Source: Xylophilus sp. GW821-FHT01B05 (lineage in GTDB: Bacteria; Pseudomonadota; Gammaproteobacteria; Burkholderiales; Burkholderiaceae_C). From it: a stretch of DNA of 64,000 bases. The stretch covers positions 1,984,001 to 2,048,000 of the forward strand of contig CP152408.1 of NCBI GenBank assembly GCA_038961845.1, read 5' to 3'. Positions 4,077 to 64,000 of the stretch are shown here, one piece after another. The translations under genes were made by a program, and so were the position numbers. Below the pieces are notes generated by a model that saw only the letters and a program-made list of their open reading frames with translations, made no database searches and was not told the DNA's origin. Each line of letters opens with the position of its first letter. Position 1 is the first letter of the stretch.

Positions 4077-4139
4077 GCTAGCGAGACCGCATACGCCACC
4101 CGGCGTATTTCGCATACAGGGCGCCGTCCATAGCATCCC
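4072..4139. other. nested inverted repeats upstream of urtA
   Basis: GGGATGCTA at 4072-4080 pairs with TAGCATCCC at 4131-4139, and inside the arms ATACGCC (4091-4097) pairs with GGCGTAT (4102-4108). The left arm overlaps the end of repeat copy A. A third hairpin, GGCTGCCC-CGTC-GGGCAGCC (4156-4175), follows before the urtA ribosome site GGAGAG. The region presumably holds the urt promoter or leader. No convincing sigma-54 or NtrC site was recognised. Confidence 0.4.
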
Positions 4140-9253: not shown

Positions 9254-9284
9254 GGGTTTGTTTTTTGTTGTTGGTCTAGGCGCT

Positions 9285-9980: not shown

Positions 9981-10039
9981 AACCCCAGCTTTCCAGTCGG
10001 AAGCCGCGGTATCCCATGCCAACGCACAAAGCCCACCCC

Positions 10040-13521: not shown

Positions 13522-13525
13522 CGGC

Positions 13526-13671
13526 ATTCCTTTCAAGGTCTTGTGATCTATTTGATAGTTCTGTTGCCTTGCTGACGGCGGGAGCCGGGACTCGCCCGCC
13601 GGGGCGAACTCCCGGCACCCGCCGCCTGCAAGGCACACAGCGCAGGGATATCTCAAAGACCTTGAAAGAGT
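13526..13671 (+). mobile_element. MITE-like element, copy C (minimal form) between convergent genes
   Basis: 146 bp with ends ATTCCTTTCAAGGTCTT (left) and ACTCTTTCAAGGTCTT (right, reverse complement). The core is just the two terminal modules joined back to back, with no internal cargo. Left flank CTTAGCGGC contains the MFS stop codon; right flank CTAGCGCGGC contains the opgD stop codon. The flanks look like a decayed target duplication across what was a shared stop-codon region. Confidence 0.75.
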
Positions 13672-13676
13672 GGGTC

Positions 13677-26370: not shown

Positions 26371-26555
26371 GGCGGGGCGCTCCAGGAAACGGGTTGGAAC
26401 GCACAGGCGGCAGAGTTCGAGTGGAATGGGCCGTGCAGGCTGAACGGCATCCATGGCATCTCGAAGCACTGCGGCTGTGCGCGCTTCGAGAGCAATTTCC
26501 GGCCGTGGTCCGGCAGTTGCACCAAGCGGGGGCAGGCTGCGCGAAGCACGGTGAA

Positions 26556-26568
26556 CGCTTCTACTCTC
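26556..26568 (-). promoter_or_regulatory. shared upstream element GAGAGTAGAAGCG, copy 2
   Basis: Same 13-bp minus-strand motif as at 23919-23931, here 186-198 bp upstream of the binding-protein gene. The 331-bp gap (26371-26701) also holds the divergent LysR promoter; nothing else was recognised in it apart from the box at 26644-26662. Confidence 0.55.
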
Positions 26569-26643
26569 TGCCGAAAATTACGCAGCTTCCGTGCCAGGCG
26601 GCTGGCGGGCTGCGCTTTTTTCATATGTGCTCATGCTGTTTAA

Positions 26644-36248: not shown

Positions 36249-37418
36249 ATGTCCTCATCCATCTCCACGGCCGACCTGGTCGACACCCTGGTGCCGCTGC
36301 CCGCCACCAGCGCCGTGCATGCCGTGCGCCACCAGCGCGACAAGGTCGTGGCCGCCACGCAGGGCAGCTACGACAGCATCTTTGATCCGGCGCTAGGCGG
36401 CCCTTCGCTGGCCGAGCGCTTGCTGGCCGCCCATGAGATCGCGCGCCTGGCCGGCAGCGCGCTGCTGCAAGCGCACTACCGCGAGCGCCTGCTGGCGCTG
36501 CCTGCGCTCACCGCGCCGCAACAGGCCGCGCTGGCGGGCCAGGCTGCCACCGGCGATGCGCGCCTGCAAGCCATCCTCGCCTTCACCCGCACCCTGACCG
36601 AGCGCCCGGTGGATGGCGACCAGGCCGCGCTGCTCAAGCTGCCCGCCGCCGGCCTGGCCACGCCCGAGGTGATTGCGCTGGCGCAACTGATCGCCTTCGT
36701 CGCCTACCAACTGCGCGTGGTGGCCGGCCTGCAGGCCCTGGTGGCGGCAGGCGATGGCGCATCGGCCGCGCCGGCCGTGGCTGATGCACCGACCGAGCCT
36801 TTCGTGCACCCGGCCAATCTGCCCAAGCCCGGCGAGCCGGTGCGCGTCAACGGCTACACCAGCGAAACCCTGGGCTGGAAGGCCTGGCTGCCGGTGGTGA
36901 AACTGGAAGAGGCCACACCCGCCCAGATGGCGGTGCTGGAAACCAGCCACCCCAAGGCCAAGACCTCGGACTACTACCGCGTGCTGGTGCACCAGCCGCG
37001 CATCCTCGAAGAGCGCTCGATCGTCTTCAACGCCATCATGTACGCGCCCGGCGGCCTGTCGCGCGCCGAGCGCGAACTGGCCAGCGCCGTGGTCTCGCGC
37101 GTCAATGGCTGCGTCTACTGCGCCTCGGTCCACGCCCAGCGCTTCGAGCAGCTCGCCAAGCGCAACGACGTGATCTATCAAGTGTTCACCGAGCCACAGG
37201 GCGCAGGCACCAACGCCCGCGAGCGCGCCATCGTGCAGTTGTCGATAGACCTCACCCTGCGGCCCGAGCAGTTTGGCGCCGCGCAACTGCAAGCCGTGCG
37301 CGCGGCTGGCCTGTCGGACCTGGAAGTGCTGGACCTGTTCCACGCCGTGGCCATCTTCGCCTGGGCCAACCGGCTGATGCTGAACCTGGGTGAGCCGGTG
37401 TACGGTGCGAGCTCTTAG
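36249..37418 (+). CDS. fused CMD / alkylhydroperoxidase (AhpD-like) protein
   Basis: 389-residue protein with two carboxymuconolactone decarboxylase-type domains. The N-terminal half (to about residue 180) is a CMD-like helical domain without the redox motif. The C-terminal half has CVYCASVHAQRF, the CxxC-x3-H active site of AhpD peroxidases. The arrangement resembles a fusion of the paired CMD and alkylhydroperoxidase families known as Avi_7170 and Avi_7169, which accompany peptide-type ABC transporters, as here. A redox or detoxification role next to a monooxygenase is plausible. Its stop TAG lies in the 11-bp target duplication of repeat copy D. Confidence 0.78.
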   Translation: MSSSISTADLVDTLVPLPATSAVHAVRHQRDKVVAATQGSYDSIFDPALGGPSLAERLLAAHEIARLAGSALLQAHYRERLLALPALTAPQQAALAGQAATGDARLQAILAFTRTLTERPVDGDQAALLKLPAAGLATPEVIALAQLIAFVAYQLRVVAGLQALVAAGDGASAAPAVADAPTEPFVHPANLPKPGEPVRVNGYTSETLGWKAWLPVVKLEEATPAQMAVLETSHPKAKTSDYYRVLVHQPRILEERSIVFNAIMYAPGGLSRAERELASAVVSRVNGCVYCASVHAQRFEQLAKRNDVIYQVFTEPQGAGTNARERAIVQLSIDLTLRPEQFGAAQLQAVRAAGLSDLEVLDLFHAVAIFAWANRLMLNLGEPVYGASS

Positions 37419-37421
37419 TCG

Positions 37422-37794
37422 CATCCCTTTCAAGGTCTTTGAGATATCTCGGCGCTGTGTGCCTTGCATGCGGCGGGTGCCGGGAGTTCGCCCCGGCGGG
37501 CGAGTAACTTTCTCTTGGCGAACGCCCAAGAGAAAGTCACCAAAGAGAAGGCGACCCCACGTGCTGCGTCCCCTGCGCTTCGCTCCGGGGCAACCTGCGG
37601 TGCTCGCGCCAGGCGGGGTCTCGCTCAAACTCGCTTCGCTCAGACAGGAGCGATCCCTGATCCGCCTGCCGCTGTGCTCCTCGGCGCATCCCGAGGGGGC
37701 CCGGGACAGCCACGCGGGCCGTCGCTGCGCTCGGCTCCTGCCGTCAGCAAGACACGAGAGCTACCGAACAGATCACAAGACCTTGAAAGGGATG
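37422..37794 (-). mobile_element. MITE-like element, copy D, with perfect 11-bp target duplication
   Basis: Non-coding element with perfect 18-bp ends CATCCCTTTCAAGGTCTT / AAGACCTTGAAAGGGATG. It is flanked by identical 11-bp direct repeats GCTCTTAGTCG at 37411-37421 and 37795-37805. The left repeat contains the stop TAG of the CMD gene and the right one the stop TAA (minus strand) of arfB. Orientation is opposite to copies A and C (GAGATATC end on the left, GTGATCTG end on the right). It contains the hairpin 37504-37540. No transposase. Confidence 0.88.
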
Positions 37795-37798
37795 GCTC

Positions 37799-38215
37799 TT
37801 AGTCGTGGCCCGGCCGGCCGCGCAAGGCCTTGGTCTCGGACCGCCGCACCTTGGCTTCCACGCGGCGGCGCACTGATGCGCGCGTGGGCTTGGTCGGTTT
37901 GCGCACGATCTGCACCAGCGCGGCCTCGTCGACCAGCGCCTGCAAGCGCTCCAGTGCATCGGCGCGGTTCTGCTCCTGCGTGCGGTGGCGCTGCGCCTTG
38001 ATGATGACCACGCCGGCAGCGGTGATGCGTCGGTCGGGCAGGGCGCGCAGGCGCTCTTTCAGTTCCTCTGGCATGGACGATGCCGCAACGTCAAAGCGCA
38101 AATGGATGGCGCTGGAGACCTTGTTGACGTTTTGCCCACCCGCGCCCTGGGCGCGTATGGCCGTGACCTCGATTTCGTCTTCGGGGATGGGCCAGGTGGG
38201 CGAGGAAGAGGCCAT
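37799..38215 (-). CDS. arfB: alternative ribosome-rescue factor ArfB (peptidyl-tRNA hydrolase)
   Basis: 138-residue RF1/RF2-like domain that releases peptides from stalled ribosomes. The catalytic GGQ is in RAQGAGGQNVNKVSSAIHL (about residues 26-28). The C-terminal basic tail (KPTKPTRASVRRRVEAKVRR) that enters the empty mRNA channel is complete. Its stop codon lies in the target duplication of element copy D, so the insertion left the protein intact. Confidence 0.93.
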   Translation of the reverse strand: MASSSPTWPIPEDEIEVTAIRAQGAGGQNVNKVSSAIHLRFDVAASSMPEELKERLRALPDRRITAAGVVIIKAQRHRTQEQNRADALERLQALVDEAALVQIVRKPTKPTRASVRRRVEAKVRRSETKALRGRPGHD

Positions 38216-53072: not shown

Positions 53073-54956
53073 CTAGGCGCTGCGCCGCAGCCCCGCGCCA
53101 CCCACTTCGCGCACAAACAGCCGCAGCCGGCCGGCCTTGGCGTCGTGCTTGGCCAGCGCGGCCAGGCTGGCGACTTCGTCTGCGTGGCGGAAGGCGCCGC
53201 AACCGACCGGCACCGCGCCTATGGACAGCGTGGTGCACGGGAAGAAGCGCGGCAGGCCTTGCCGGTCTTCACCGTGGATGCCGCCGGCAGCGCGCGCCGC
53301 CGGGTCGAACAATGCCAGCGCCTGCTCGGCGAAGTCGTCCACGATGCGCTCGCAGCGCTGGCGCCAGTCCACGCTCTGGAACAGCACCATGAAATCGTCG
53401 CCGCCCACATGGCCGACAAAGTCACGCTGCGGGTCGGCATGGGCCACGGACAGGCGCGCGGCCAGGCGGATCATTTCGTCGCCGCGCCAGTAGCCGTAGT
53501 GGTCGTTAAAGGGCTTGAAGTCGTTCAAGTCTGCGTGGCAGGCGACGAAGGGCGTGCCGCTGCCCAGCAGGCGCTCGATGTGCAGGTTGATCGGGATGTT
53601 GCCAGGCAGGAAGGTCAGCGGGTTGGCGTGGCGCGCGGCCTCTATGCGGGCCTCGGTCACGGAGCGCACCAGTTGCTCGCCCGTGCCCAGGCCGGCGTAG
53701 CGGCCTTGCTCGGTGACGATGAAGCCGTCGTTCAGGTAGCGCTGGTCGTGCGAGGTCAGGATGGCGATCAGGTCGTCTATGTCGTCGTCCAGCTCGATCA
53801 CGCGCGGCGAGCGGTTGGCGTGCGTGATGCAGGGCTTCTTGCCATGCACCTCGCGAAAGTACAGCGTGGCGTAGTGGTCCATGAACTGCTGGCGGTTCAC
53901 CAGCGCCACCGGGCGGTCGCCTTCCACCAGTGCCACCGCATGCAGCTCGCTGCGCGCGTGGAACAGCGCAGCCAGGTCGTTGTGCGAGGTGTCGGGCGGC
54001 AGCGCTGGCGCATCGATCAGCGCCAGGCCGCGCAGCACGCCGGGGCGCGCCGGGCGTTGCGGCAGCATGGGCGGCATGGCGGGGCCGGTGGACAGTGCAA
54101 TGGTGGCGGCGGCCTCCAGCCGCAACCGTGGCGCCAGCGCCGGGCGGCCCAGCAGGTAGCCCTGGCCGTGCGATATGCCCAGCTCGCGCAGGGCGCGCAG
54201 CTCTTCCACCGTCTCTATGCCCTCGGCCACCAGGCGCGTGCCGAAGATGTCGGCAATGCCTTGTATGGCGCGCAGCACCTGCAGCTTCTCGGGGCCGCTG
54301 TCTTCCTGCCCCACACCGCGGGTGAAGTACTTGTCGATCTTGACGAAGTCCGGCCGCAGCTCAGACCACACGCGCAAGCTGGAATGGCCGTCGCCAAAGT
54401 CGTCCAGCGCCAGCATGGCGCCGCAGGCGTGCACCTGCTGCGCCACAGTGCGCAGCGCTTCCAGGTCGGGCACGCGCTCGTGCTCGGTGATCTCCAGCAC
54501 CAGTTGGCGCGGGTCCATGCGCACGCCGCGCAGTGTCTCCAGCAGTGCGTCGCGGCCATGCCGCTGCACCGCCTGCACCAGCGCGTCGGCGCCAATGTTC
54601 ACAAACAGCCTGCCAGTGCCGCAGGCGCGGTGCCACTCGGCCAGCACCGTCTGCAGGCAGAACAGCTCAAAGGCCTGCGCCATGCCGGCGCGCCGCGCCA
54701 GGGCCAGCAGTGCGTCGGGCGGGTGCAGGGGCGTGTCGACCGGGCCGCGGATCAGCGCCTCGTGGCCATAGACCGCGCCGGTGCGCAGATCTGCCAGCGG
54801 CTGGAACACCGCATGCAACTGGTGGTAGCGCATCAGCCGCGCGAGCACGCGTGCCTCCTTGTGCCTTTGCACAGCGGGCATGGAATGCAATGGAGCGGTG
54901 GCAGGAGCGGCAAGCATGGGCCTGCCCATGGTGTGGCAGGCGCGTGACGTGGCCAT
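53073..54956 (-). CDS. EAL-CBS-GGDEF c-di-GMP signalling protein
   Basis: 627-residue cytoplasmic protein. The N-terminal EAL domain (E66-A-L) retains the usual catalytic residues: LFVNIGADAL, LEITEHE, LALDDFGDGHSS, FVKID, VAEGIET and the QGYLLGRP glutamine. A middle CBS-type pair spans roughly residues 310-430. The C-terminal GGDEF domain carries GGDDF (518-522), with no arginine at the inhibitory RxxD position (PQRD). It can therefore be a phosphodiesterase with a regulatory or active cyclase domain. Start 54956 is used because the frame beyond it runs antisense into glycerate kinase. Divergent from that gene. Confidence 0.85.
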   Translation of the reverse strand: MATSRACHTMGRPMLAAPATAPLHSMPAVQRHKEARVLARLMRYHQLHAVFQPLADLRTGAVYGHEALIRGPVDTPLHPPDALLALARRAGMAQAFELFCLQTVLAEWHRACGTGRLFVNIGADALVQAVQRHGRDALLETLRGVRMDPRQLVLEITEHERVPDLEALRTVAQQVHACGAMLALDDFGDGHSSLRVWSELRPDFVKIDKYFTRGVGQEDSGPEKLQVLRAIQGIADIFGTRLVAEGIETVEELRALRELGISHGQGYLLGRPALAPRLRLEAAATIALSTGPAMPPMLPQRPARPGVLRGLALIDAPALPPDTSHNDLAALFHARSELHAVALVEGDRPVALVNRQQFMDHYATLYFREVHGKKPCITHANRSPRVIELDDDIDDLIAILTSHDQRYLNDGFIVTEQGRYAGLGTGEQLVRSVTEARIEAARHANPLTFLPGNIPINLHIERLLGSGTPFVACHADLNDFKPFNDHYGYWRGDEMIRLAARLSVAHADPQRDFVGHVGGDDFMVLFQSVDWRQRCERIVDDFAEQALALFDPAARAAGGIHGEDRQGLPRFFPCTTLSIGAVPVGCGAFRHADEVASLAALAKHDAKAGRLRLFVREVGGAGLRRSA

Positions 54957-55035
54957 GACAGCGCCCCTGGGGGCGCTGTTGGCTACCGGGCAAAATCCCA
55001 GGCTGTTTTGACCAACCGAGACAAAGCCGCGCGCC

Positions 55036-56346
55036 ATGACCGACTTCCGCACCGACCCCCGCGCCTTCCTGCGCCACCTCTTTGACGTGGCCGTGCGCCG
55101 CGCCCAACCGCTGCACACGCTGGAGCCGTTTCTGCCCCAGCCTCCCAAGGGCCGCACCGTGGTGATCGGCGCGGGCAAGGCCGGCGGCGCCATGGTGCAG
55201 GCGCTGGAGGCGCTGTGGCCGGCCAGCGCGCCGCTGTCGGGCCTGGTCGTCACCCGCTACCACCACATCCCTGAGCGCCCGGCCGGCCTGCCCGAGCGCA
55301 TAGAGCTGGTCGAGGCCGCGCACCCGGTGCCCGACGCGGCCGGCCTGGCCGCTGCCGAGCGCATGCTGCAGATGGTGCAGGGGCTGACGGCCGATGACCT
55401 GGTGCTGTGTTTGATATCCGGCGGCGGCTCGTCCTTGCTGACCTTGCCGGCCGAGGGCCTGACGCTGGAAGACAAGCAGCGCATCAACCGCGCCCTGCTG
55501 GAATCGGGCGCGCACATTGGCGAGATGAACTGCGTGCGCAAGCACCTGTCGCGCATCAAGGGCGGGCGCCTGGCGGCGGCCTGCGCGCCGGCGCGCGTGG
55601 TGACGCTGGCGATCAGCGACGTGCCGGGCGACGACCCGTCCATCATCGCCAGCGGCCCCACCGTGCCTGATGCCAGCACCTGCGCCGAGGCATTGGCCAT
55701 CCTGGCGCGCTACGGCATCGAGGTGCCGGCCGCCGTGCGCGCGCGCCTGCAAGACGGCACGCTGGAAACCCCCAAGCCCGGCGACGCCTTGTTCGACGGC
55801 CACGTGGTGCAACTGATCGCCGCGCCGCAGCAGTCGCTGGAGGCGGCCGCCGATGCCGTGCGCGCCGCCGGCCTGCCCGCGTACATCCTGAGCGATGAGA
55901 TCGAGGGCGAGTCGCGCGAGGTCGGCAAGGTGCATGCCGCGCTGGCACGCGCCGTGGCGCTGCGCGGCCAGCCGTTTGCGCGGCCCTGCGTGATCCTGTC
56001 GGGTGGCGAAACCACCGTCACCATCCGCCCACGCCAGCCCGGCGCCGCCAAAGGCCGCGGCGGCCGCGCCGGCGAGTTCTGCATGGGCCTGGCGCAGGCG
56101 CTGCAAGGCCAGCCCAACGTCTGGGCGCTGGCGGCCGATACCGATGGCATCGACGGTGTGGAAGACAACGCCGGCGCCTTCGTGCAGCCCGACACGCTGG
56201 CGCGCGGCCTGGCCGCCGGGCGCAAGGTGGCCGAGCACCTGGAGCGCAACGATGCCTATGGCTACTTCGAGGTGCTGGGGGATTTGCTGGTGACCGGGCC
56301 TACGAATACCAACGTGAACGATTTTCGGGCGCTGCTGGTGTTGTGA
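55036..56346 (+). CDS. ttuD: glycerate 2-kinase (MOFRL family)
   Basis: 436-residue kinase that phosphorylates D-glycerate to 2-phosphoglycerate, the last step of glyoxylate/tartronate-semialdehyde or tartrate use. The N-terminal GCKF-type domain has VIGAGKAGGAMVQALE and LISGGGSSLLTLPAEGL; the C-terminal MOFRL domain has ILSGGETTVTI and WALAADTDGIDGVEDNAGAF. The gene is complete. Its last 246 bp are present again at 59020-59265 (about 97% identical) and its last ~130 bp, more divergent, at 62968-63097. The name ttuD rests on family resemblance; gckA is a synonym in some species. Confidence 0.92.
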   Translation: MTDFRTDPRAFLRHLFDVAVRRAQPLHTLEPFLPQPPKGRTVVIGAGKAGGAMVQALEALWPASAPLSGLVVTRYHHIPERPAGLPERIELVEAAHPVPDAAGLAAAERMLQMVQGLTADDLVLCLISGGGSSLLTLPAEGLTLEDKQRINRALLESGAHIGEMNCVRKHLSRIKGGRLAAACAPARVVTLAISDVPGDDPSIIASGPTVPDASTCAEALAILARYGIEVPAAVRARLQDGTLETPKPGDALFDGHVVQLIAAPQQSLEAAADAVRAAGLPAYILSDEIEGESREVGKVHAALARAVALRGQPFARPCVILSGGETTVTIRPRQPGAAKGRGGRAGEFCMGLAQALQGQPNVWALAADTDGIDGVEDNAGAFVQPDTLARGLAAGRKVAEHLERNDAYGYFEVLGDLLVTGPTNTNVNDFRALLVL

Positions 56347-56378
56347 TTTGAGGCGTCAAGGATGTGTTCTGCGAGCGC

Positions 56379-56504
56379 TTACTGTCCGCCGGTTTCATTT
56401 TTCTTCTTTCTCCCTTGATCGTAATGCCACTTGATGGCGAAAAACATGCCCGTGCCGAACACAAGAACCTTGAATGCAATGAAGAATATAGGGAAAAAAT
56501 CCAT
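56379..56504 (-). CDS. small membrane protein, 41 residues
   Basis: Short frame with a hydrophobic N-terminus (MDFFPIFFIAFKVLVFGTGM) and a basic tail (KWHYDQGRKKKNE), the pattern of single-span small membrane proteins that I associate with other Proteobacteria. It lies just after glycerate kinase in the opposite direction, within the first accessory insert, where base composition is lower in GC. No clear ribosome site beyond CAAAG. Function unknown. Confidence 0.5.
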   Translation of the reverse strand: MDFFPIFFIAFKVLVFGTGMFFAIKWHYDQGRKKKNETGGQ

Positions 56505-56588
56505 CTTTGAGTATTTTATGGCTATTAATTGACACTATCTATCTCGATAGTAGCAAACCAGTGGTCGAGTAGCACTGGACATTTTGTC

Positions 56589-56684
56589 TCACTGATCGGG
56601 AGCAAGGCGTGCTGAATTTATGTGTTCCTTGAAACGTCGAATATCTTTGCGAGCCGCCTTTGCGCCTTCTCTCTCGCCGCCCAT
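56589..56684 (-). CDS. possible 31-residue charged peptide or gene remnant
   Basis: ATG at 56684 follows the very strong ribosome site AGGGAGG by seven bases, and the 31-codon frame (start MGGEREGAKAARKDIRRFKE) is highly charged. The same frame is open upstream without a start for about 25 codons, ending at a TGA, so this may be the tail of a decayed gene. Otherwise 56505-56935 shows no gene. Confidence 0.3.
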   Translation of the reverse strand: MGGEREGAKAARKDIRRFKEHINSARLAPDQ

Positions 56685-56935
56685 GTAGCCTCCCTCAATA
56701 ACATTGCATCGTGTCCAGCACCTAAGTGGCAGCTTCTGGACCCATAGCTGTCCCGCACGTCAGAAATCCGATCAACAGGACCGCCGCAAAGCGGTCGCCG
56801 ACCTGCGCGAAATCACGGGCGGCAACTGGCCCTTTGCTTCCAAAGCCTGGGGCAGAATTCGGCCAGAAGCTGACCTTCGCCTCGTGCACCCAGTCAGCTT
56901 GCAAATGGAGCGGCACAGAAAATTTGGCTATTGAG

Positions 56936-57256
56936 ATGCAAGAAACGGATTGGCTTGAACCTTGGACATCGACCGCTGGCGCGGACGACGGCTACCTTCG
57001 TACCTTCGCGGAGCAGCTTGCTCGCGAAACGAGCCGGGGTCATGAACTGCACCAGGTTCCAGTGAAACTCATCGGCCGTGGCAACGGCGACGATGCACTT
57101 TTCGAGCTGCAGGACGGTACAGGCCGCGTTGCTCAGGTTCATCTTGTCTGGCAAGGGAGGCAAAAGCCGCCATGGCCTGGAACCGCAATCTTTGCAAGCC
57201 TTGAAGACTGGCGAATTAAAAGCATGATTCCGGAGAACCGTGAGTGGCAGGACTAG
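56936..57256 (+). CDS. uncharacterised small protein, 106 residues
   Basis: Soluble protein beginning METDW-like (MQETDWLEPWTS), with GDDALFELQDGTGRVAQVHLV and a C-terminal WPGTAIFASLEDW. This matches my recollection of a widespread family of ~100-residue proteins of unknown function with VLFEV...VHLTW and W-P-x-T motifs. Start 56936 is chosen over 56726 because similarity begins there. It precedes kptA by 13 bp on the same strand, so the two may form one unit. Confidence 0.6.
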   Translation: MQETDWLEPWTSTAGADDGYLRTFAEQLARETSRGHELHQVPVKLIGRGNGDDALFELQDGTGRVAQVHLVWQGRQKPPWPGTAIFASLEDWRIKSMIPENREWQD

Positions 57257-57269
57257 AGGAACAATTGGT

Positions 57270-57821
57270 ATGAACAGCGTGATTGAAAAGAGCAAGTTTT
57301 TAAGTCTTGTACTTCGTCATGCACCAGAAAAAATCGGATTGTCACTGGACGGCGCTGGATGGGCGCAGGTTGACGTTCTTTTGGAACGAGCGAATGCCAA
57401 CGGCGTTGCACTGAATCGGGAATCGCTAAGTCAGATTGTGGCCAGCAGCGATAAGCAACGGTTTGTTTTCAGCGACGACAGAGAGCGCATTCGCGCCAAT
57501 CAGGGCCATTCCGTTGAGATAGACCTTGGGCTGCCGCCCCAGGAGCCGCCAAACCAATTGTTTCATGGAACTGCATTTCGGTTCCTTGAGTTAATTCGGA
57601 GCAATGGTCTACAGCCGATGGAGAGACAGCATGTGCACCTGTCGCCAGACGAGCAGACGGCAGAAAGCGTAGGCCGACGCCACGGTAAGCCTTGCGTCCT
57701 GTTGGTGAACGCGAAGGCAATGCACTTAAGCGGGCAGTTGTTCTTCCTCTCAAACAATGGCGTTTGGCTAACCGCAGCGGTACCACCGGAGTTCATCGGC
57801 TTCCCCCGCGACGGGGTATAA
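57270..57821 (+). CDS. kptA: RNA 2'-phosphotransferase KptA/Tpt1
   Basis: 183-residue enzyme that transfers an internal RNA 2'-phosphate to NAD, giving ADP-ribose 1'',2''-cyclic phosphate. It is complete: SKFLSLVLRHAPEKIGLSLD and GWAQVDVLL at the N-terminus, RIRANQGHSVEIDLGL, the NAD-binding LFHGTAFRFL, the HLSPDEQTAESVGRRHGKPC segment, and the C-terminal VWLTAAVPPEFI. Bacterial KptA has no known tRNA-splicing role; RNA repair or ADP-ribosylation of nucleic-acid ends has been proposed. Located in accessory DNA with a small unknown protein upstream. Confidence 0.92.
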   Translation: MNSVIEKSKFLSLVLRHAPEKIGLSLDGAGWAQVDVLLERANANGVALNRESLSQIVASSDKQRFVFSDDRERIRANQGHSVEIDLGLPPQEPPNQLFHGTAFRFLELIRSNGLQPMERQHVHLSPDEQTAESVGRRHGKPCVLLVNAKAMHLSGQLFFLSNNGVWLTAAVPPEFIGFPRDGV

Positions 57822-57873
57822 CTGTCATCGCGTCACTTGTACGAACGGCCGCCTTGGAGGCCCCGCAAAGTCG

Positions 57874-57889
57874 GCTTTGGGCCCAAAGC
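57874..57889. other. 16-bp perfect palindrome between kptA and phosphotransferase gene
   Basis: GCTTTGGGCCCAAAGC in the 165-bp gap after kptA. It is not followed by a T-tract on either strand, so terminator function is doubtful. It may be a recombination or protein-binding site. Confidence 0.35.
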
Positions 57890-57986
57890 AGCCATTGGCT
57901 GTTTCCTCATTCCTGGCCTTGTCAGCAGCAAGTCGAAAATGGGCGAACCGCCTTATCGAAGCGTCTGACCGGACGGCCATTGACCC

Positions 57987-59012
57987 ATGACCGATAGCCA
58001 GAAACACAATCCCCATCTTGTCCCCACCCACACCACCACAGCCGCCGACTCCATCGCAAGCTGGGTAGCCCAGCACCATGGCATTGCGGTGCAGCAGTGC
58101 CACCTGATTCGTCGCGGGCTGAACGACAACTACGCGCTTCGGTCGGTCGACGGAAGCAAGTACGTGGCACGGCTGTGCTCGATCCGGCCGCGAGGCGGCT
58201 TCAACGTGGATTTCGAAGTTGCACTGCTGGCGCACTTGGCGGCCAAAGGCGCAGAGGTCGCAGCGGCGGTGCTGACAGCAGACAAACGCACGCACGTTCA
58301 ATTGCAGTTCCCCGAAGGCCCGCGTGCGTTGCTTCTGTTTCGCCATGCTGAGGGCGTCACGCCCGAGTCCTTGGACGAGTTCGAACTGACCGGCCGTGCG
58401 TTGGCGCGGGTGCATGCTGCGGCGCAGGGCTACGCTGGGCCGCCTAGCCTTTACGCGCTGGACGGCCACCATCTTGCCGGCAGGACGCTGATGCACTTGG
58501 CGGCACATCCAGAAATGACCACCGAGTTGCTGGAGACATACAGCCAACTGGTGGCCCGCCTGCTTGCAGAGCTGATTGCAGCCGAAGAGGGGCTCACGCG
58601 TGTCCTGTGCCACGGTGACATGCATGGCTTCAACAACCATGTGGCGACGGACGCGGCCGGCGCCAAGAAAACCGTACTCTTCGACTTCGACGATGCAGGC
58701 CCGGGCTTCCTGGCATACGACCTGAGCGTGCTGCCGTGGTCGTACCTGAATCGCAAGAGCCTCAAGCAAGCAGACGACGCGTTGCGGGAGCGCTGGGTGC
58801 ACTACCTGCGCGGCTATCGGGCGGGCGGCGGCGAGGTGAGCGACTGCGACTTGGCTGCGCTACCGCTTTTTGTACAGTTGCGGCACCTGTGGAACATCGG
58901 CGAGGCGGCGGGCCGTCTGCACCATTGGGGAACGAGCAACGTGCCTGCGGATTGGCTGCAGAAGCAGGTCGAGGTCTTCAAGGCGTGGAGCGCGCTGGAT
59001 CTGCGCGCGTGA
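57987..59012 (+). CDS. APH-family phosphotransferase
   Basis: 341-residue kinase-like protein (aminoglycoside phosphotransferase/homoserine kinase/SrkA superfamily). The catalytic loop is CHGDMHGFNNHV (HGDxHxxN) and the metal aspartate is in LFDFDDAGPG; the N-lobe has RGLNDNYALRSVDGSKYVAR. The substrate could be a small alcohol, a protein (SrkA-like) or an aminoglycoside; resistance should not be assumed. Its stop codon is only 7 bp before the duplicated glycerate-kinase 3' end, so it is the last gene of the first insert. Confidence 0.8.
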   Translation: MTDSQKHNPHLVPTHTTTAADSIASWVAQHHGIAVQQCHLIRRGLNDNYALRSVDGSKYVARLCSIRPRGGFNVDFEVALLAHLAAKGAEVAAAVLTADKRTHVQLQFPEGPRALLLFRHAEGVTPESLDEFELTGRALARVHAAAQGYAGPPSLYALDGHHLAGRTLMHLAAHPEMTTELLETYSQLVARLLAELIAAEEGLTRVLCHGDMHGFNNHVATDAAGAKKTVLFDFDDAGPGFLAYDLSVLPWSYLNRKSLKQADDALRERWVHYLRGYRAGGGEVSDCDLAALPLFVQLRHLWNIGEAAGRLHHWGTSNVPADWLQKQVEVFKAWSALDLRA

Positions 59013-59019
59013 TGCCGCG

Positions 59020-59265
59020 CTGCAAGGCCAGCCCAATGTCTGGGCGCTGGCGGCCGATACCGATGGCATCGACGGCGTGGAGGACAACGCCGGCGCCTTC
59101 GTGCAGCCCGACACACTGGCGCGCGGCCTGGCGGCGGGGCGCAAGGTGGCGGATCACCTGGAGCGCAACGATGCCTATGGCTACTTCGAGGTGCTGGGGG
59201 ATTTGCTGGTGACCGGGCCTACGAATACCAACGTGAACGATTTTCGGGCGCTGCTGGTGTTGTGA
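59020..59265 (+). pseudogene. duplicated 3' end of glycerate 2-kinase, copy 2
   Basis: 246 bp matching 56101-56346 with 8 differences (about 97%). Seven are silent at the protein level and one changes E to D (VADHLERN). The last ~105 bp, including the stop TGA, are identical. There is no start codon or 5' part. It begins 8 bp after the phosphotransferase stop. Structurally it marks the right border of the first accessory insert (56347-59019). The following 142 bp (59266-59407) hold no recognisable gene. Confidence 0.9.
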
Positions 59266-59407
59266 TTTTGGGGCGTGGCGCTTGGATGCGCCGGGCTCGG
59301 TGTTGCGCTGCCCGGTCTTCCACCGCCTCCTTTATGTCGCTGCGCAGAGCACGCCCTACTTGATGCTGGCGAGAGCCTTCTGCGGCGGGCGACGGCTGGT
59401 CAGCGTA

Positions 59408-60577
59408 TCAATCCCCAACGTGTGCGTTTCGCCCTGCGAGCATCCCCGCACAGGCACCCAGGATCGCAATAGCTGCGGCCACCGTCAGCGCGGCAGTCCA
59501 GCCCTGCTGCCAATCGCGAATGGCGCCCAATACCATGGGGCCAGCGGCAGCCATGAGGTACCCAATGCCTTGCGCCATGCCTGAAAGAGCACCAGCCTCT
59601 TCAGCGGATCGGGTGCGCAGGCCGATGAATGTCAGGCCAAGAATCATGCTTGCCCCACTACCGAACCCGAGCAACGCAGACCAGACCAACGCCAAGCGCG
59701 GTAAAAAAATCAGCCCGAGCATAGAAACTGCGCAGATCAGGCTTGCGGAAATGGCCGCGGGCCGCTGGTCTGGCATTCGCCTGATGACGGTGGCCAGAAT
59801 CAAGCCAGGGATGGCGGTAGCGAGCTGCAAAACGCCATGCATGGAGCCCGCTTGGGTGGCGGACAGGCCCTGGTCTACCAAAATTGTGGGAAGCCAGCTG
59901 ACGGCTATGTAAAAAATCATGGCGTTGAAACCCATGAACAGCGTCACTTGCCATGCCAACGCGGAGCGCCACATGTTCGCTGAGCGCCCATGCCGGACGC
60001 TGACGGGAGTGCTCTTCGCAGGCGCATTGCGCCGTGGCGCCCAAGCTGCCAGAGCAATTGCGGGCAGAAGGATGAATGCCGCAAGAGCAAGTTGCCATCC
60101 ATACGCTTGGGTCATTGGGGCGACCAGCGCCGAGCCGAGCGCACCGCCGGCACCCATCGTCAATGCGTAGGCACCTGTGAGCGATGCAACACGCCCCGGA
60201 AAATCACGTTTGACCAGGCTCGGCAGCAGTACGTTTCCAAACGCTATCCCAATGCCAATAACGGCGGTGCCGTAGTAAAGCAGCCACATGGAGCCGGTGG
60301 AGCGCATAACGATGCCCAGCGCGATGAGCATTAATGCTCCAAGAATCGTGCGATCAAGCCCGAACTTTCTTGCGATGGCCGGACTCACCGGAGAGAAAGC
60401 GGCAAAGGCGAGCAACGGCAGCGACGTCAGTGCCCCTACAGCCGCTGTGCTGAGACTGAAGTCACTTTGAATAAAGGTCAGGACGGGGGCCAAGCCTGTA
60501 AACGGTGCGCGGAGATTCATGGCGAGAAGCAGAATTCCAGCGATCAGGGCCATGTTGGACGGCGCCCGTTGAGTCAT
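59408..60577 (-). CDS. nimT: CynX/NimT-family MFS exporter
   Basis: 389-residue transporter with twelve predicted helices. MNLRAPFTGLAPVLTFIQSD and the following region are typical of the CynX/NimT (YeaN) group. In E. coli, NimT exports 2-nitroimidazole and is controlled by the divergent AraC-type NimR; here an AraC gene is likewise divergent, 101 bp away. ATG 60577 is taken as the start; a GTG at 60589 would add four residues. GC content is visibly lower than in the core genes. The substrate may differ from nitroimidazole. Confidence 0.78.
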   Translation of the reverse strand: MTQRAPSNMALIAGILLLAMNLRAPFTGLAPVLTFIQSDFSLSTAAVGALTSLPLLAFAAFSPVSPAIARKFGLDRTILGALMLIALGIVMRSTGSMWLLYYGTAVIGIGIAFGNVLLPSLVKRDFPGRVASLTGAYALTMGAGGALGSALVAPMTQAYGWQLALAAFILLPAIALAAWAPRRNAPAKSTPVSVRHGRSANMWRSALAWQVTLFMGFNAMIFYIAVSWLPTILVDQGLSATQAGSMHGVLQLATAIPGLILATVIRRMPDQRPAAISASLICAVSMLGLIFLPRLALVWSALLGFGSGASMILGLTFIGLRTRSAEEAGALSGMAQGIGYLMAAAGPMVLGAIRDWQQGWTAALTVAAAIAILGACAGMLAGRNAHVGD

Positions 60578-60678
60578 TGAAAAGGTCACAGAAAAGAAGA
60601 AGCTCGGAAAAGGGCTTCCGACTTTAGGTAAGCTGCGACTTAATTAATATAGAAGAATTGACCAATGATCACTAAAAA

Positions 60679-61497
60679 ATGACATCACCGTCCAGGCCCC
60701 GCGTCAGCACCCCCGATGACTTCAACTCTGATCATTTCGGGCAGGCTGCCGTCGCTGTGCGGGTTCATGTGGAAGGCAAGCAGTCCGAACACCCTCTGCA
60801 TCGCCACCGCAAAGGGCAGTTGATCCTGATGCTGCAAGGATCGGTGACTTGCGAGGTTCCTCAGGCGCTGTGGTTCGTGCCGCCGCAGCACGCGGTCTGG
60901 ATACCGGGTGGCACGCCCCACAGCAGCAGAGCGTCCAGCAACGCCCAGCTCTACTTTCTGTTCATCGAGCCTGGCGCGGTCCGCATGCCCGACAACTGCT
61001 GCACATTGGCGATCACACCTCTGATCCGTGAACTGATTCGCCATCTCGCCCAAGAGGAGCCTGCTTACAGCCGGGGCAGCTCGACCGACAGGCTGGTCTC
61101 CGTGCTTCTGGACCAGTTGGCAGCGGCACCCATTGAACAACTGCACCTCCCAATTTCGCAGGAGCCAAGCATCAAGCGCATATTGGATGCGCTGACGGCG
61201 GACCCGGCTGACCGGACCACGCTGTCGCAATGGTCAGCGCGCCTGGCGATGAGCGACAGGACCTTGGCGCGGCTCGTTGTGCGCGAGACGGGATTGACAT
61301 TTGGTCGCTGGCGCCAGCAACTTCATCTCATAGTTGCCCTTCGACATTTGGCCAACGGCGAGTCGGTTCAGCGAGTCTCAGGACTTCTGGGCTATGACTC
61401 GGTGACGGCGTTCATCACGATGTTCAAGAAGGCTCTGGGGAAGTCCCCCACCCAGTACTTCGCCAGCTTGCGGGAGTCCTCCTCCACTGCCGACTAG
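60679..61497 (+). CDS. nimR: AraC-family regulator, NimR-like
   Basis: 272-residue regulator. An N-terminal cupin domain (HPLHRHRKGQLILMLQGSV, VWIPGGTPHSSR) is followed by a two-HTH AraC domain (TTLSQWSARLAMSDRTLARL, RVSGLLGYDSVTAFITMFKK). This cupin-AraC layout and the divergent CynX-type exporter reproduce the nimR-nimT arrangement. The gap contains the AT-rich CTTAATTAATATAG promoter region. Likely a repressor of the exporter relieved by its substrate. Confidence 0.78.
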   Translation: MTSPSRPRVSTPDDFNSDHFGQAAVAVRVHVEGKQSEHPLHRHRKGQLILMLQGSVTCEVPQALWFVPPQHAVWIPGGTPHSSRASSNAQLYFLFIEPGAVRMPDNCCTLAITPLIRELIRHLAQEEPAYSRGSSTDRLVSVLLDQLAAAPIEQLHLPISQEPSIKRILDALTADPADRTTLSQWSARLAMSDRTLARLVVRETGLTFGRWRQQLHLIVALRHLANGESVQRVSGLLGYDSVTAFITMFKKALGKSPTQYFASLRESSSTAD

Positions 61498-61630
61498 ATG
61501 GTAGTGCTGCGCGGCTGCCGTAGAAGGCGAGGTTGCTGAAGACGTGGACGCTTGCCCACCGAGGTGCCGATTCCGCTACTCAGGCACTTGCCAAACCTCG
61601 CAGGCCCTGTCTTTGCCCCCAATCAATAAC

Positions 61631-61672
61631 AGACCATTCAGTCTGATAAATATTTTGTAGACTATGGGGTCT
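61631..61672. promoter_or_regulatory. two TetR-type operators, AGAC-N6-GTCT
   Basis: AGACCATTCAGTCT (61631-61644) and AGACTATGGGGTCT (61659-61672) are two copies of AGAC-N6-GTCT, 28 bp apart start to start, 18 bp before the DoxX-like gene. The TetR gene is second in this unit and is the obvious ligand. The remaining 61498-61630 shows nothing else. Confidence 0.7.
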
Positions 61673-61689
61673 ACTAATTATTGATTGCC

Positions 61690-62094
61690 ATGACTCAACT
61701 TCTTGCAGCAGTTGCCGACCACCCAGGCACATTGGTGGCTTTTCGTGTAGTCCTTACAACGTTCTTCTGGATGGCGGGCCTCTATGGTCTGTTCAACTTC
61801 AGCGCTATCGTCGACGAGATGGTCGCGGAGAAGCTGCCCGCGCCGGTGGCATTTGCGGTCGCGACGATTGCAACGCAGCTCATTGGCTCGGCACTGCTCA
61901 TCTCGGACTATCGCGGGCTGGGCTGGCTTGGCGCCGGAGCGCTTGCCGTGTTCACGCTGCTGACCATTCCCATCGGGCACGCCTTCTGGACCTTCTCTGA
62001 ACCAAAACGCACGGCAGAATTTCACATCGCCCTGGAGCACATTACCGTCGTGGGCGGCCTGCTCCTCGCAGGACTTCTTTCACTGAAAAAATGA
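61690..62094 (+). CDS. DoxX-like small membrane protein
   Basis: 134-residue protein with four predicted helices (VVLTTFFWMAGLYGLFNFSA, FAVATIATQLIGSALL, AGALAVFTLLTIPIGHAF, ITVVGGLLLAGLLSL). The pattern with a conserved F-x-E-K/H-x-A-L-E-H end resembles DoxX/DUF417-type proteins that accompany TetR genes in redox- or electrophile-response units. The stop overlaps the TetR start (ATGA). An upstream TTG (61681) is possible but ATG 61690 is preferred. Confidence 0.75.
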   Translation: MTQLLAAVADHPGTLVAFRVVLTTFFWMAGLYGLFNFSAIVDEMVAEKLPAPVAFAVATIATQLIGSALLISDYRGLGWLGAGALAVFTLLTIPIGHAFWTFSEPKRTAEFHIALEHITVVGGLLLAGLLSLKK

Positions 62095-62738
62095 CCGAAC
62101 CAAGCCCTCGTACCCGTGGTCGCCCTAAGGACGCCAGCAAGCGCGACGCCATCTTGATTGCCGCTCGCGGGCTCTTACTCGACTGCGGTGTAGATGTCAC
62201 CACGGGCGAGGTCGCCGCAGCCGCTGGCGTTGCGAAGGCAACGCTCTACGCGAACTTCAAGGATAAAGATGAGCTGATTGAGGCGGTCATCCGGCGAGAG
62301 TCGGAGCAGGTTATTGCGGACGACTTCATTCAGGTGCGGCCAGGTGCCACGTTCGCGAAAGTGCTGCGCAGCTTTGGCGCCAAGTACGTCCGTTTTGTCA
62401 ACCAAACGGACGTATCCGGGTGGGACCGCCTGATTGCGCATGGCGCCAAGCGAATTCCCCAGTTGCCCCATCGGTTCTATGAGGCGGGCCCTGGCCGGTG
62501 GAACCGACTACTGATGCAACTCCTGACGACCGGCGTTGATCTGGGATGCCTGCGCCCCCTGAACAATGCCCAGGCGGCAGAGGACTTGACGGCTCTCTGG
62601 ATGGGTTCCACCAGCCTGAAGGTCAAACTTGGCGTTGGCAAGCCAATGAGTGAGAAAGCCATTCTGGCCAAAGTGGACCATGGCATCGACGTTTTCAAAA
62701 CCTTCTACGGGGCTGCGATAGGGGATGCGCAGAACTGA
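62091..62738 (+). CDS. TetR-family repressor
   Basis: 215-residue regulator. The HTH covers residues 15-62 (TTGEVAAAAGVAKATLYANF), and the C-terminal domain is of the AcrR/TetR_C type (WDRLIAHGAKRIPQLPHRFY). It is coupled to the DoxX-like gene; the two AGAC-N6-GTCT sites upstream of that gene suggest autoregulation of the unit. The inducer is unknown. Confidence 0.87.
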   Translation: MTEPSPRTRGRPKDASKRDAILIAARGLLLDCGVDVTTGEVAAAAGVAKATLYANFKDKDELIEAVIRRESEQVIADDFIQVRPGATFAKVLRSFGAKYVRFVNQTDVSGWDRLIAHGAKRIPQLPHRFYEAGPGRWNRLLMQLLTTGVDLGCLRPLNNAQAAEDLTALWMGSTSLKVKLGVGKPMSEKAILAKVDHGIDVFKTFYGAAIGDAQN

Positions 62739-62789
62739 CAGGCCTTCTTTGGACGTCAGCATCTGGCCGCATTGCTGGCCGCTTAGAAC

Positions 62790-62849
62790 GTGTTTGCGAC
62801 CCGTCATCCCGCCAAGATGCTTGCGCGATCCCATAGAGTTCGTAAACAC
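62790..62849. other. imperfect inverted repeat before element copy E
   Basis: GTGTTTGCGA (62790-62799) and TCGTAAACAC (62840-62849) are inverse with one mismatch, 40 bp apart. It may be a further small mobile repeat. Located in the 499-bp non-coding stretch 62739-63237. Confidence 0.35.
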
Positions 62850-62861
62850 CTTCTTATAGCC

Positions 62862-62967
62862 ATTCCTTTCAAGGTCTTGTGATGTGTTCGGTCGTTCTCG
62901 GGTCTTGCTGACGGCAGGAGCTGGGCCGAGCGCAGCGGCAGGCGGATCAGGGATCGCTCTTGTCTGC
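62862..62967 (+). mobile_element. MITE-like element, copy E, right side missing
   Basis: Left end ATTCCTTTCAAGGTCTTGTGAT followed by modules matching the right half of copy D in reverse (CTTGCTGACGGCAGGAGC, then AGGCGGATCAGGGATCGCTC), with internal deletion. It stops abruptly at TTGTCTG and is fused to a glycerate-kinase 3' fragment; no right inverted end is present. Confidence 0.75.
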
Positions 62968-63097
62968 CGGGCGCAAAGCGGCCGAGCACCTGGAGCGCAA
63001 CGATGCCTATGGCTACTTCGAGGCGCTGGGGGATCTGCTGGTGACGGGGCCGACCAATACCAACGTCAATGATTTCCGTGCGCTACTGATTTTGTAG
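62968..63097 (+). pseudogene. duplicated 3' end of glycerate 2-kinase, copy 3
   Basis: 130 bp matching the last part of ttuD with 16 differences (about 88%), mostly silent; the encoded tail still reads as the family C-terminus [16 protein letters not shown], ending in TAG rather than TGA. It starts directly at the broken end of element copy E. It marks the right border of the second accessory insert (59266-62967). It may be the displaced original gene end or derive from another strain. Confidence 0.85.
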
Positions 63098-63116
63098 CTT
63101 ATAGCCCGTGATTCCT

Positions 63117-63150
63117 CTGCATTTCAGGTGCTTTTTTATCTGAAATGCAG
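63117..63150. terminator. 11-bp stem hairpin after the kinase 3' fragment
   Basis: CTGCATTTCAG (63117-63127) pairs perfectly with CTGAAATGCAG (63140-63150) around a 12-nt loop that is T-rich on the plus strand. No T-tract follows on either side, so termination is possible but not certain. It lies between the kinase fragment and the convergent surface-protein gene. Confidence 0.45.
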
Positions 63151-63237
63151 GATCTACCAGGGGCTGCTGCTATCTTTTTTGTGAAAGCAGAAATCGCCGC
63201 CCGCTCAGCCCGGCGGGCGTGCCTGCAAGCCAGGCGC

Positions 63238-64000
63238 CTACCGCCGCCGCAGCCCGCGCGCGCCCAGCATGGCCAGTGCCAGGCTCATGGCTGCCAGCAT
63301 CCAGGGCTGCAGCAGGGGGATGGCCGTTGGGTTTACCGGCCCGGCCGCAGCCATGATGGCAATGCCGCCTGGGTCGACGATGCGGCCGTCTGCCGCCAGG
63401 TCGCTGTCGCCGGGGCCGCCGTCGGTGATGCTCAGCGTCACGGTGTTGCCCGTGATCTGCACCTGGCTGGCGTCCAGCGCATACCAGTGGTCCTGCGGCT
63501 GCTGCGCCGTGGGGCCGTACTTCCAGTACTGCGCGTTGGCCGGCAGGGCATTGCCGGGGTAGCTCAGGCGCAGCGACAGCGTGCGGCCGGCCTGGTCGCA
63601 GGTGGCCTGGAAGCTCAGCAGGCCATGGGGCATGGCCGTGGCGCCCGGCGGCAGCGTGGCTGGTGCCGCCGGGTAGCTCACCGTGTCGAAGGCGCAAGTG
63701 TTGCCCTGGATATCGGTGGTGAGCGTGCCCTGTCCGCCGGGGCTGGGCGCGCTGTAGCCCGACTGTGCAAACTGCGCCACCACCGTGCAGTCCTGCGCCA
63801 TCGCGGCCGTGGTGTAGGTGCTGCCCACCAGCGTGCCGCCGCAGGTACCGCCAACACTGGCTATGCGCCAGCCGCTGGCGGGCTGCAGGGTGAACTGCTG
63901 CACGCTGCCCAGGTCCAGCACTTGTGGCGTGGCCGGGCTGATCTGCCCACCGGCACCGCTCACGCTGGGCGTGACGGTGGGGGCGGCCAGATAGACCTGG
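63238..64000 (-). CDS. IPTL-CTERM surface protein with choice-of-anchor U-like domain, 5' end outside window
   Basis: At least 254 residues of the C-terminal part of a secreted protein; the frame is open to base 64000. It ends with a sorting tag of the IPTL-CTERM type: AIPLLQPWMLAAMSLALAML and a basic GARGLRRR. Before it lies a domain with LSFQATCDQAGRTLSLRLSY and ITDGGPGDSDLAADGRIVDPGG, the pattern of choice-of-anchor U domains. Before that is a repeat-like GSVQQFTLQPASGWRIASVGG region with paired cysteines. Probably exported and anchored or processed at the envelope. Minor departure: IPLL instead of IPTL. Confidence 0.8.
   Translation of the reverse strand, partial: QVYLAAPTVTPSVSGAGGQISPATPQVLDLGSVQQFTLQPASGWRIASVGGTCGGTLVGSTYTTAAMAQDCTVVAQFAQSGYSAPSPGGQGTLTTDIQGNTCAFDTVSYPAAPATLPPGATAMPHGLLSFQATCDQAGRTLSLRLSYPGNALPANAQYWKYGPTAQQPQDHWYALDASQVQITGNTVTLSITDGGPGDSDLAADGRIVDPGGIAIMAAAGPVNPTAIPLLQPWMLAAMSLALAMLGARGLRRR

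What the first reader, a model, noticed from the sequence alone, without database searches (positions are those of the whole stretch)
55036..63097. Three copies of the glycerate-kinase 3' end delimit two tandem accessory inserts
The full ttuD gene is followed by insert 1 (56347-59019: small proteins, KptA, APH-type kinase), then a 246-bp copy of the ttuD 3' end, then insert 2 (59266-62967: NimT/NimR-like pair, DoxX/TetR unit, broken repeat E), then a third, 88%-identical 130-bp copy. This is the geometry of islands that integrate into the 3' end of a gene and restore it. No integrase is seen, so it could be an unrecognised integration hot spot or serial homologous recombination with incoming DNA.
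Basis: partly seen in the sequence, partly recalled or inferred. Interest (0 to 1): 0.8.

Follow-up and report, generated by a model that had tools for sequence, protein, structure and literature searches.

The report
Stacked gene-end copies mark DNA insertions
Behind a sugar-acid kinase gene in a Xylophilus bacterium, two batches of acquired genes are each followed by a leftover copy of that gene's tail, most likely because incoming DNA kept recombining at this spot without a dedicated integration enzyme.

Summary
Intact ttuD (glycerate kinase, 55036-56346) is followed by two partial 3'-end copies, 59017-59265 (97%) and 62966-63097 (89%), behind inserts of 2.7 and 3.7 kb. An assembly error is unlikely: the genome is one 5.83-Mb contig, and a second Xylophilus species (ASV27) has a two-copy version with the same insert/ttuD junction. 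Of 7 genomes of the genus searched, only these two have stacked ends. Four share the gene upstream of ttuD but differ in what directly follows it; in Leaf220 a 39% G+C ATPase pair sits there. So this is a turnover spot in the genus. No integrase lies in the inserts, and no attC site or phage/viral relative of the end was found. The ends fall into two allelic types about as far apart as the two species and differing mainly at synonymous sites, so both evolved in working genes. Best reading: serial recombination with DNA of close relatives, homologous in ttuD and non-homologous at the far side, each time leaving the old tail downstream. That works like the displaced 3'-end arrays of V. cholerae T6SS loci and resembles 'insertion with long target duplication'. 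The order of insertions and linear versus circular donor DNA are unresolved. New variant of a known kind.

The parts
53073..55253 (-). EAL/GGDEF gene, conserved upstream neighbour of ttuD in 4 of 7 Xylophilus genomes
   Evidence: Pfam; tblastn. The ORF as listed overlaps ttuD; the true start is probably further in.
55036..56346 (+). intact ttuD (glycerate 2-kinase family), carrying end copy 1 (type A end)
   Evidence: Pfam DUF4147 + MOFRL; NCBIfam glycerate 2-kinase models below their cut-off
56346..56829 (.). left block of insert 1; 84% identical to a block in another genus, the match beginning at the ttuD stop codon
   Evidence: G009:C1:839919-840389
57240..57821 (+). KptA RNA 2'-phosphotransferase, insert 1
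   Evidence: Pfam PF01885; NCBIfam NF002014 above cut-off
57987..59012 (+). APH-fold kinase, end of insert 1; shared with ASV27 (93% aa)
   Evidence: Pfam PF01636; shared DNA block 57958-59263, 92.5%
59017..59265 (+). copy 2 of the ttuD 3' end, codon 355 to stop, type A end
59266..62965 (.). insert 2 (MFS/AraC pair, DoxX/TetR pair, truncated repeat E)
   Evidence: DNA 59266-62860 matched only itself and a 68% piece (AraC gene) in one other of 399 genomes
59408..60589 (-). CynX/NimT-family MFS transporter
   Evidence: TIGR00896, E 6e-106 but below the curated cut-off
60679..61497 (+). AraC-family regulator
   Evidence: Pfam
61681..62094 (+). DoxX-family membrane protein
   Evidence: Pfam PF07681
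62091..62738 (+). TetR-family regulator
   Evidence: Pfam PF00440 + PF14246
62858..62966 (-). repeat E fragment, cut internally where copy 3 begins
62966..63097 (+). copy 3 of the ttuD 3' end, codon 394 to stop, type B end
63238..64000 (-). 3' part of an IPTL-CTERM / choice-of-anchor U surface-protein gene that follows copy 3 (it runs on to about 66183 in window numbering); the region next to copy 3 is also next to ASV27's end copy
   Evidence: NCBIfam; gene extent; 62966-63280 is 95% identical in ASV27

Best explanation
The locus is an array built by serial recombination of incoming DNA at the ttuD 3' end. Each incoming molecule came from a close relative and carried ttuD sequence followed by other genes. 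On one side it recombined by homology inside ttuD, so the resident gene received an equivalent 3' end and stayed intact. On the other side it was joined without long homology to the resident ttuD at codon 355 in one event and codon 394 in the other. That left the rest of the old ttuD end, plus everything behind it, as a displaced remnant. The blocks between the anchors have since been exchanged between strains. Shown: three copies, one identical junction in two species, two allelic end types, different genes after ttuD in relatives, and no integrase in the inserts. Inferred: homology-facilitated illegitimate recombination, the route of DNA entry, and close relatives as donors.
For: (1) ASV27 has the same APH-stop/codon-355 junction, and its partial copy ends in the type B end followed by the same flank. 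(2) Different genes directly follow ttuD in window, ASV27, Leaf220 and X. ampelinus, although all four share the upstream EAL gene. (3) Copy left edges differ (codons 355 and 394) and copy 3 abuts an internally truncated repeat E with at most about 1 bp of overlap. (4) Ends A and B differ mainly at synonymous sites (pS 0.28-0.31 against 0.24 for whole ttuD between the two species), and all five ends group together among 102 ends (support 0.82). (5) Copies 1 and 2 are identical over the last 111 bp of the gene but have 8 differences in the first 138, as expected of a crossover or conversion. (6) Insert 1 also turned over: a G009-like block plus KptA in the window, a different block in ASV27.
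Against: No donor molecule (ttuD followed directly by insert 2) and no empty site with the same downstream flank was found. The order of insertions is undecided: ASV27 could be the ancestral two-copy state or could have lost insert 2 by recombination between copies 2 and 3. A boundary near the stop codon is partly expected anyway, because coding sequence is conserved and flanks are not. The crossover test in (5) chose its cut after seeing the data. Only 7 Xylophilus genomes were available. ComEC is present in 7 of 7, but it is present in 10 of 14 control genomes too, so it says little about competence.
Confidence: 0.6

Rival explanations
1. Campbell-type integration: small circular molecules carrying a 5'-truncated ttuD end (from codon 355 in one, 394 in the other) plus cargo were inserted by a single crossover in the resident ttuD end. 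The gene gets the donor end and the donor's truncated copy is left behind.
For: It gives exactly the same geometry and explains why each partial copy begins abruptly behind cargo. ASV27's partial copy looks mosaic (codons 355-393 are 4/117 from window copy 1, but its last 23 codons are 13/69 from it).
Against: No plasmid or phage carrying such a truncated end was seen: phages none, viral contigs none, plasmids 127 matching records, of which the best was checked and carries the whole gene (the other 126 were not checked). The mosaic signal rests on few sites.
Confidence: 0.17
2. Integrase-type islands target the ttuD 3' end and restore it; the integrase has been lost or acts from elsewhere.
For: The target gene stays intact, the copies are direct repeats, and cargo differs between strains. 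Long attachment repeats are known for some phages (recalled).
Against: No recombinase among the scanned insert proteins and no PF00589 match in the inserts; the nearest of 10 in this genome is about 45 kb away. The elements share no right end, there is no identical core, and no other ttuD end exists in the genome. Serine recombinases were not searched genome-wide.
Confidence: 0.08
3. Local tandem duplication of the ttuD end with neighbouring DNA, followed by divergence and deletions; no incoming ttuD allele is needed.
For: An APH-stop/codon-355 joint is also what a tandem duplication would leave. The truncated repeat E at copy 3 shows a secondary deletion or illegitimate joint.
Against: Flanks behind the copies are unrelated. 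Copy 3 differs from copy 1 chiefly at synonymous sites (10.5 to 3.5, p about 5e-4), so the divergence arose in a working gene and not by decay of a fragment. Differences between the two type B remnants (3 to 2) are compatible with neutral drift (p 0.12).
Confidence: 0.1
4. Integron-like or transposon-like gain of single cassettes behind ttuD.
For: Insert 1's left block has a relative in another genus, in a run of small ORFs with lower third-position G+C. Repeat E is MITE-like.
Against: A scan for attC-like sites gave 0 in either insert, 0 in the G009 stretch and 0 in the ASV27 contig (motif recalled). It would not explain the copied ttuD ends.
Confidence: 0.03

Closest known systems
Displaced 3'-end arrays by homology-facilitated illegitimate recombination (V. 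cholerae T6SS effector-immunity arrays; orphan Rhs ends); PMC5361080, passages seen
   Same: A conserved anchor receives a new 3' end plus cargo and older 3' ends and cargo are pushed downstream. Serial events, no integrase; complete blocks are also exchanged by ordinary homologous recombination.
   Different: There the variable part is the effector's own C-terminal domain and cargo is its immunity gene. Here the displaced end encodes nearly the same residues as the resident end, and the cargo is unrelated to the anchor gene.
Insertion with long target duplication (restriction-modification genes in Helicobacter pylori; Nobusato et al. 2000, not seen; described in passages of PMC1643837, PMC3154945, PMC4978471)
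   Same: An insert flanked by a long direct duplication of target sequence.
   Different: Here the duplications are the end of one gene, occur twice in series and are mosaics of two alleles; cargo is not a restriction-modification system.
Transfer hotspots lacking mobile elements, driven by homologous recombination in flanking core genes (PMC5635113, abstract and passages seen)
   Same: Variable content between conserved genes without an integrase; homologous recombination in the flanking gene proposed.
   Different: That model uses homology on both sides and leaves no gene-end copies; here the remnants record one-sided events.
Integrative islands that insert into a gene's 3' end and restore it (recalled)
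   Same: Gene restored, 3'-end direct repeats, strain-specific cargo.
   Different: No integrase, no constant element end, no identical core found.

Membership tests
Displaced 3'-end array by homology-facilitated illegitimate recombination | Intact anchor gene followed by serial 3' remnants with cargo between them | tested here: met
Displaced 3'-end array by homology-facilitated illegitimate recombination | Far side joined without long homology | tested here: inconclusive
   Copy 3 abuts a truncated repeat E with at most about 1 bp overlap. For copy 2 the donor sequence behind the APH gene is unknown; relatives at 62-71% diverge just after the stop.
Displaced 3'-end array by homology-facilitated illegitimate recombination | Relatives hold earlier or alternative states of the array | tested here: met
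   ASV27 two-copy state with the same junction
Displaced 3'-end array by homology-facilitated illegitimate recombination | Recombination demonstrated experimentally in the species | not testable with these tools
   -
Insertion with long target duplication | Long direct duplication of target at the two sides of an insert | tested here: met
Insertion with long target duplication | Relative with an otherwise identical locus, one target copy and no insert | tested here: not met
   Single-end relatives have different downstream genes; no empty site with the same flanks among 7 genus genomes
Hotspot without mobile elements | Different accessory genes between the same core genes in relatives | tested here: inconclusive
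   Upstream neighbour shared by 4 of 7, genes directly after ttuD differ; a shared downstream core gene was found only for window and Leaf220
Hotspot without mobile elements | No integrase or transposase in the spot | tested here: met
   repeat E is a non-coding repeat and was not tested for mobility
Integrase-type island at a gene 3' end | Integrase gene in the element | tested here: not met
Integrase-type island at a gene 3' end | Identical attachment core in both end repeats and constant element ends | tested here: not met
   copies restart at codons 355 and 394
Integron cassette array | attC sites | tested here: not met
   0 attC-like sites in either insert (motif recalled)

The most novel reading that the evidence does not exclude
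The ttuD tail works as a portable homology arm. Strains of this Xylophilus clade exchange cargo units that each carry their own ttuD 3' end, so every unit can enter any strain at ttuD, repair the gene on entry and leave one more anchor for the next unit. This would be an integrase-free cassette array that grows by housekeeping recombination at an ordinary metabolic gene.
Probability: 0.2. Interest if true: 0.65.

Novelty: new variant of a known kind. Interest (0 to 1): 0.42.

Why it matters
Many transfer hotspots lack integrases, and how they take up genes is mostly inferred statistically (PMC5635113 passages: 45% of hotspots encode an integrase). Here the remnants of individual events remain legible: which gene was the anchor, where each joint fell and which allele supplied each end. 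It extends the displaced-end arrays described for toxin loci to a metabolic gene with unrelated cargo, and makes the mechanism testable by sampling more strains.

Tried and rejected
Integrase island: searched PF00589 in 7 genus genomes, Pfam and PHROGs on insert ORFs, the ttuD end in phages and viral contigs; nothing in support. Plasmids gave 127 records; only the best was opened and it carries a whole ttuD.

Family-wide recurrence: 366 of 399 genomes matched the 82-aa end, but the list of places was capped and genomes with two or more matches were mostly not examined. Nine suspicious places were fetched and all were whole genes, contig edges or frameshifted genes. Of the 80 best named loci (of 354), one has an end copy (ASV27; one search examined 89 loci, ASV27 twice; some loci end early at contig edges). 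So stacked ends were not seen outside the two Xylophilus species in what I examined, but absence in the family is not shown.

Weak end copies in relatives: local alignment of the last 160 bp of ttuD against 9.5 kb downstream in five genus genomes stayed within shuffled scores.

Origin of end B: 183 of 399 genomes matched copy 3 plus flank, but among listed places only window and ASV27 extend beyond the gene end by more than about 15 bp; origin unresolved.

APH relatives in four other-genus genomes (62-71%, 6 of 299 genomes at E<=1e-80 with window and ASV27) have no ttuD within the 19-kb stretches fetched. attC scan. RNA families and tRNAs: one xanthine riboswitch far away, no tRNA. The tblastx comparison was mostly noise and was not used. 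The Leaf220 row was out of register and was dropped.
Full report
WHAT IS THERE. The window lies at 1984001-2048000 of a single-contig genome of 5,832,500 bases. Relatives in its genus could be named by matching contig lengths and positions: G004 = Xylophilus sp. ASV27, G003 = Xylophilus sp. Leaf220, G001 = X. ampelinus CECT 7646, G006 = an uncultured Xylophilus MAG. The window's own strain and G002 and G005 remain unnamed. Intact ttuD (55036-56346) is followed by insert 1, a second copy of its last 82 codons plus stop (59017-59265), insert 2, and a third copy of its last 43 codons plus stop (62966-63097). No other convincing ttuD end exists in the genome; four further BLAST matches are 28-68 bp long at E 8e-5 to 1e-3.

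NOT AN ASSEMBLY ARTEFACT. ASV27 (contig of 13,156 bases, L050) reads ttuD, a different block, the APH gene, then a ttuD end that starts at the same codon with the same few bases after the APH stop. That copy ends as copy 3 of the window does and runs into the same flank (95% over 315 bp). The block 57958-59263 is 92.5% identical between the two species, against 91.3% for ttuD. So insert 1's core (APH plus end copy) probably predates the split of these species.

THE SPOT TURNS OVER. In 4 of 7 genus genomes the EAL gene precedes ttuD. What directly follows differs: in the window a block 84% identical to DNA of another genus, the match beginning at the ttuD stop codon, then KptA; in ASV27 a 79-aa ORF, of which 149 bp match the window block in inverted orientation; in Leaf220 an AAA_15/AAA_21 ATPase and a 208-aa partner with third-position G+C of 0.34-0.39, resembling ATPases of anti-phage systems, with the last four ttuD codons different; in X. 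ampelinus a 97-aa ORF and a FAD-linked oxidase gene. Among 78 of the 80 named loci that could be scored, the G+C drop after ttuD is largest in Leaf220 and third largest in ASV27. A Variovorax is second; X. ampelinus (9th) and the Xylophilus MAG (14th) lie much nearer the median. Boundaries near a stop codon are partly expected because coding sequence is conserved, so I give this only moderate weight.

THE ENDS ARE TWO ALLELES AND MOSAICS. End type A (window copies 1 and 2, ASV27 ttuD) resembles the X. ampelinus end; end type B (window copy 3, ASV27 partial copy) differs from A by 11-13 of the last 69 bases. Differences between A and B over the last 43 codons are mainly synonymous (for example 10.5 synonymous and 3.5 non-synonymous, p about 5e-4 on rounded counts), with pS 0.28-0.31 against 0.24 for whole ttuD between the species. 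B therefore diverged in a working gene at about the distance of a sister species, and all five ends group together in a 102-sequence tree (support 0.82; only 129 bp, so weak). Copies 1 and 2 are identical over the last 111 bp but differ at 8 of the first 138 (Fisher p 0.009, cut chosen after the fact). In codons 355-393 the partial copy of ASV27 is closer to window copy 1 (4/117) than ASV27's own ttuD is (10/117 to each), a further hint of mosaicism that rests on few sites.

JOINTS. The APH protein ends where its relatives end, and four bases later ttuD codon 355 begins. Copy 3 begins at codon 394 immediately after repeat E is cut internally. Repeat E is dispersed (75 matching pieces in the genome) with consistent outer ends and terminal inverted repeats in the longest copies, so its truncation at the joint marks an illegitimate joint or a later deletion.

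HOW IT MOST LIKELY AROSE. Shown: the array, its copy in a second species, allelic mosaics, variable neighbours. Inferred: incoming DNA paired with the resident ttuD end, replaced the end by an equivalent one and was joined non-homologously further inside the resident ttuD, leaving the old end and everything behind it downstream. Two histories fit: insert 2 entered the ASV27-like two-copy array, or insert 2 is older and ASV27 lost it by recombination between copies 2 and 3. Single-crossover insertion of circles carrying truncated ends gives the same map and is kept as the main rival.

AGAINST AN INTEGRASE. No PF00589 match in the inserts (10 in the genome, nearest about 45 kb away), no recombinase among scanned insert ORFs, no common right end, no identical core, no phage or viral contig with the end. 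Serine recombinases were not searched across the genome.

IS IT GENERAL? In 800 kb of this genome no other pair of this kind stood out; other interspersed same-strand repeats outside repeat E were shorter, mostly families of 60-125 bp, plus one pair of 167 bp. A 400-kb stretch of G005 gave two short pairs. Most of the genome was not scanned.

COMPARISON WITH WHAT IS KNOWN. The geometry matches the model for V. cholerae T6SS immunity-gene arrays, where a conserved upstream stretch anchors incoming DNA and the other end is joined illegitimately, shifting old 3' ends back (PMC5361080, passages). Homology-facilitated illegitimate recombination is described for three naturally competent species and at low frequency in E. 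coli conjugation (PMC3240628, abstract and passages). Insertion with long target duplication is described in passages of PMC1643837, PMC3154945 and PMC4978471; the original paper was not seen. Hotspots lacking mobile elements and showing more recombination in flanking core genes are described in PMC5635113 (passages). A search for glycerate kinase with integrase, attachment site and genomic island gave no paper, and a search with Xylophilus gave mostly papers on the nematode of that species name (listing only). I found no description of this locus in those searches.

VERDICT. A real, well-preserved case of serial insertion at the end of a metabolic gene, in two species. The kind of process is known; its use of a metabolic gene as a repeated anchor, with readable remnants, is the new variant.

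Noticed in passing
window 3689-4090, 9284-9982, 13517-13689, 37414-37802, 62858-62966: Repeat E: roughly 380-bp dispersed element with terminal inverted repeats (ATCCCTTTCAAGGTCTT), 75 matching pieces in the genome, often in nearby opposed pairs; MITE-like, no coding capacity examined.
   Followed up: partly
L051 12463-14350 (Leaf220): Low-G+C AAA_15/AAA_21 ATPase gene with a 208-aa partner (phrog_25533) directly after ttuD; resembles ATPases of several anti-phage systems without fitting one.
   Followed up: partly
G000 5009588-5009754 and 5037231-5037397: 167-bp direct repeats, 98% identical, 27.5 kb apart; possible ends of an island.
   Followed up: no
G000 1804057-1884350: Family of about 80-110-bp dispersed repeats, nine or more places within 80 kb.
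   Followed up: no
window 63238 onward (to about 66183 in the extended sequence): Large IPTL-CTERM/choice-of-anchor U gene with internal repeats (shifts of about 147 bp); several relatives elsewhere in the genome.
   Followed up: no
window 26485-26571 (-): Xanthine riboswitch (NMT1) above Rfam's gathering score.
   Followed up: no
window 56401-56547; 61 of 399 family genomes: The left part of insert 1 (mostly 56400-56545) matches DNA in many Comamonadaceae; in ASV27 the corresponding stretch overlaps a 79-aa ORF in inverted orientation. It may be a widespread small accessory gene.
   Followed up: partly
G006:C52, L013: The full-length ttuD of the Xylophilus MAG has one in-frame TAG in the match, and further ttuD pieces lie at contig edges (C68, C95), perhaps a second copy.
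   Followed up: no
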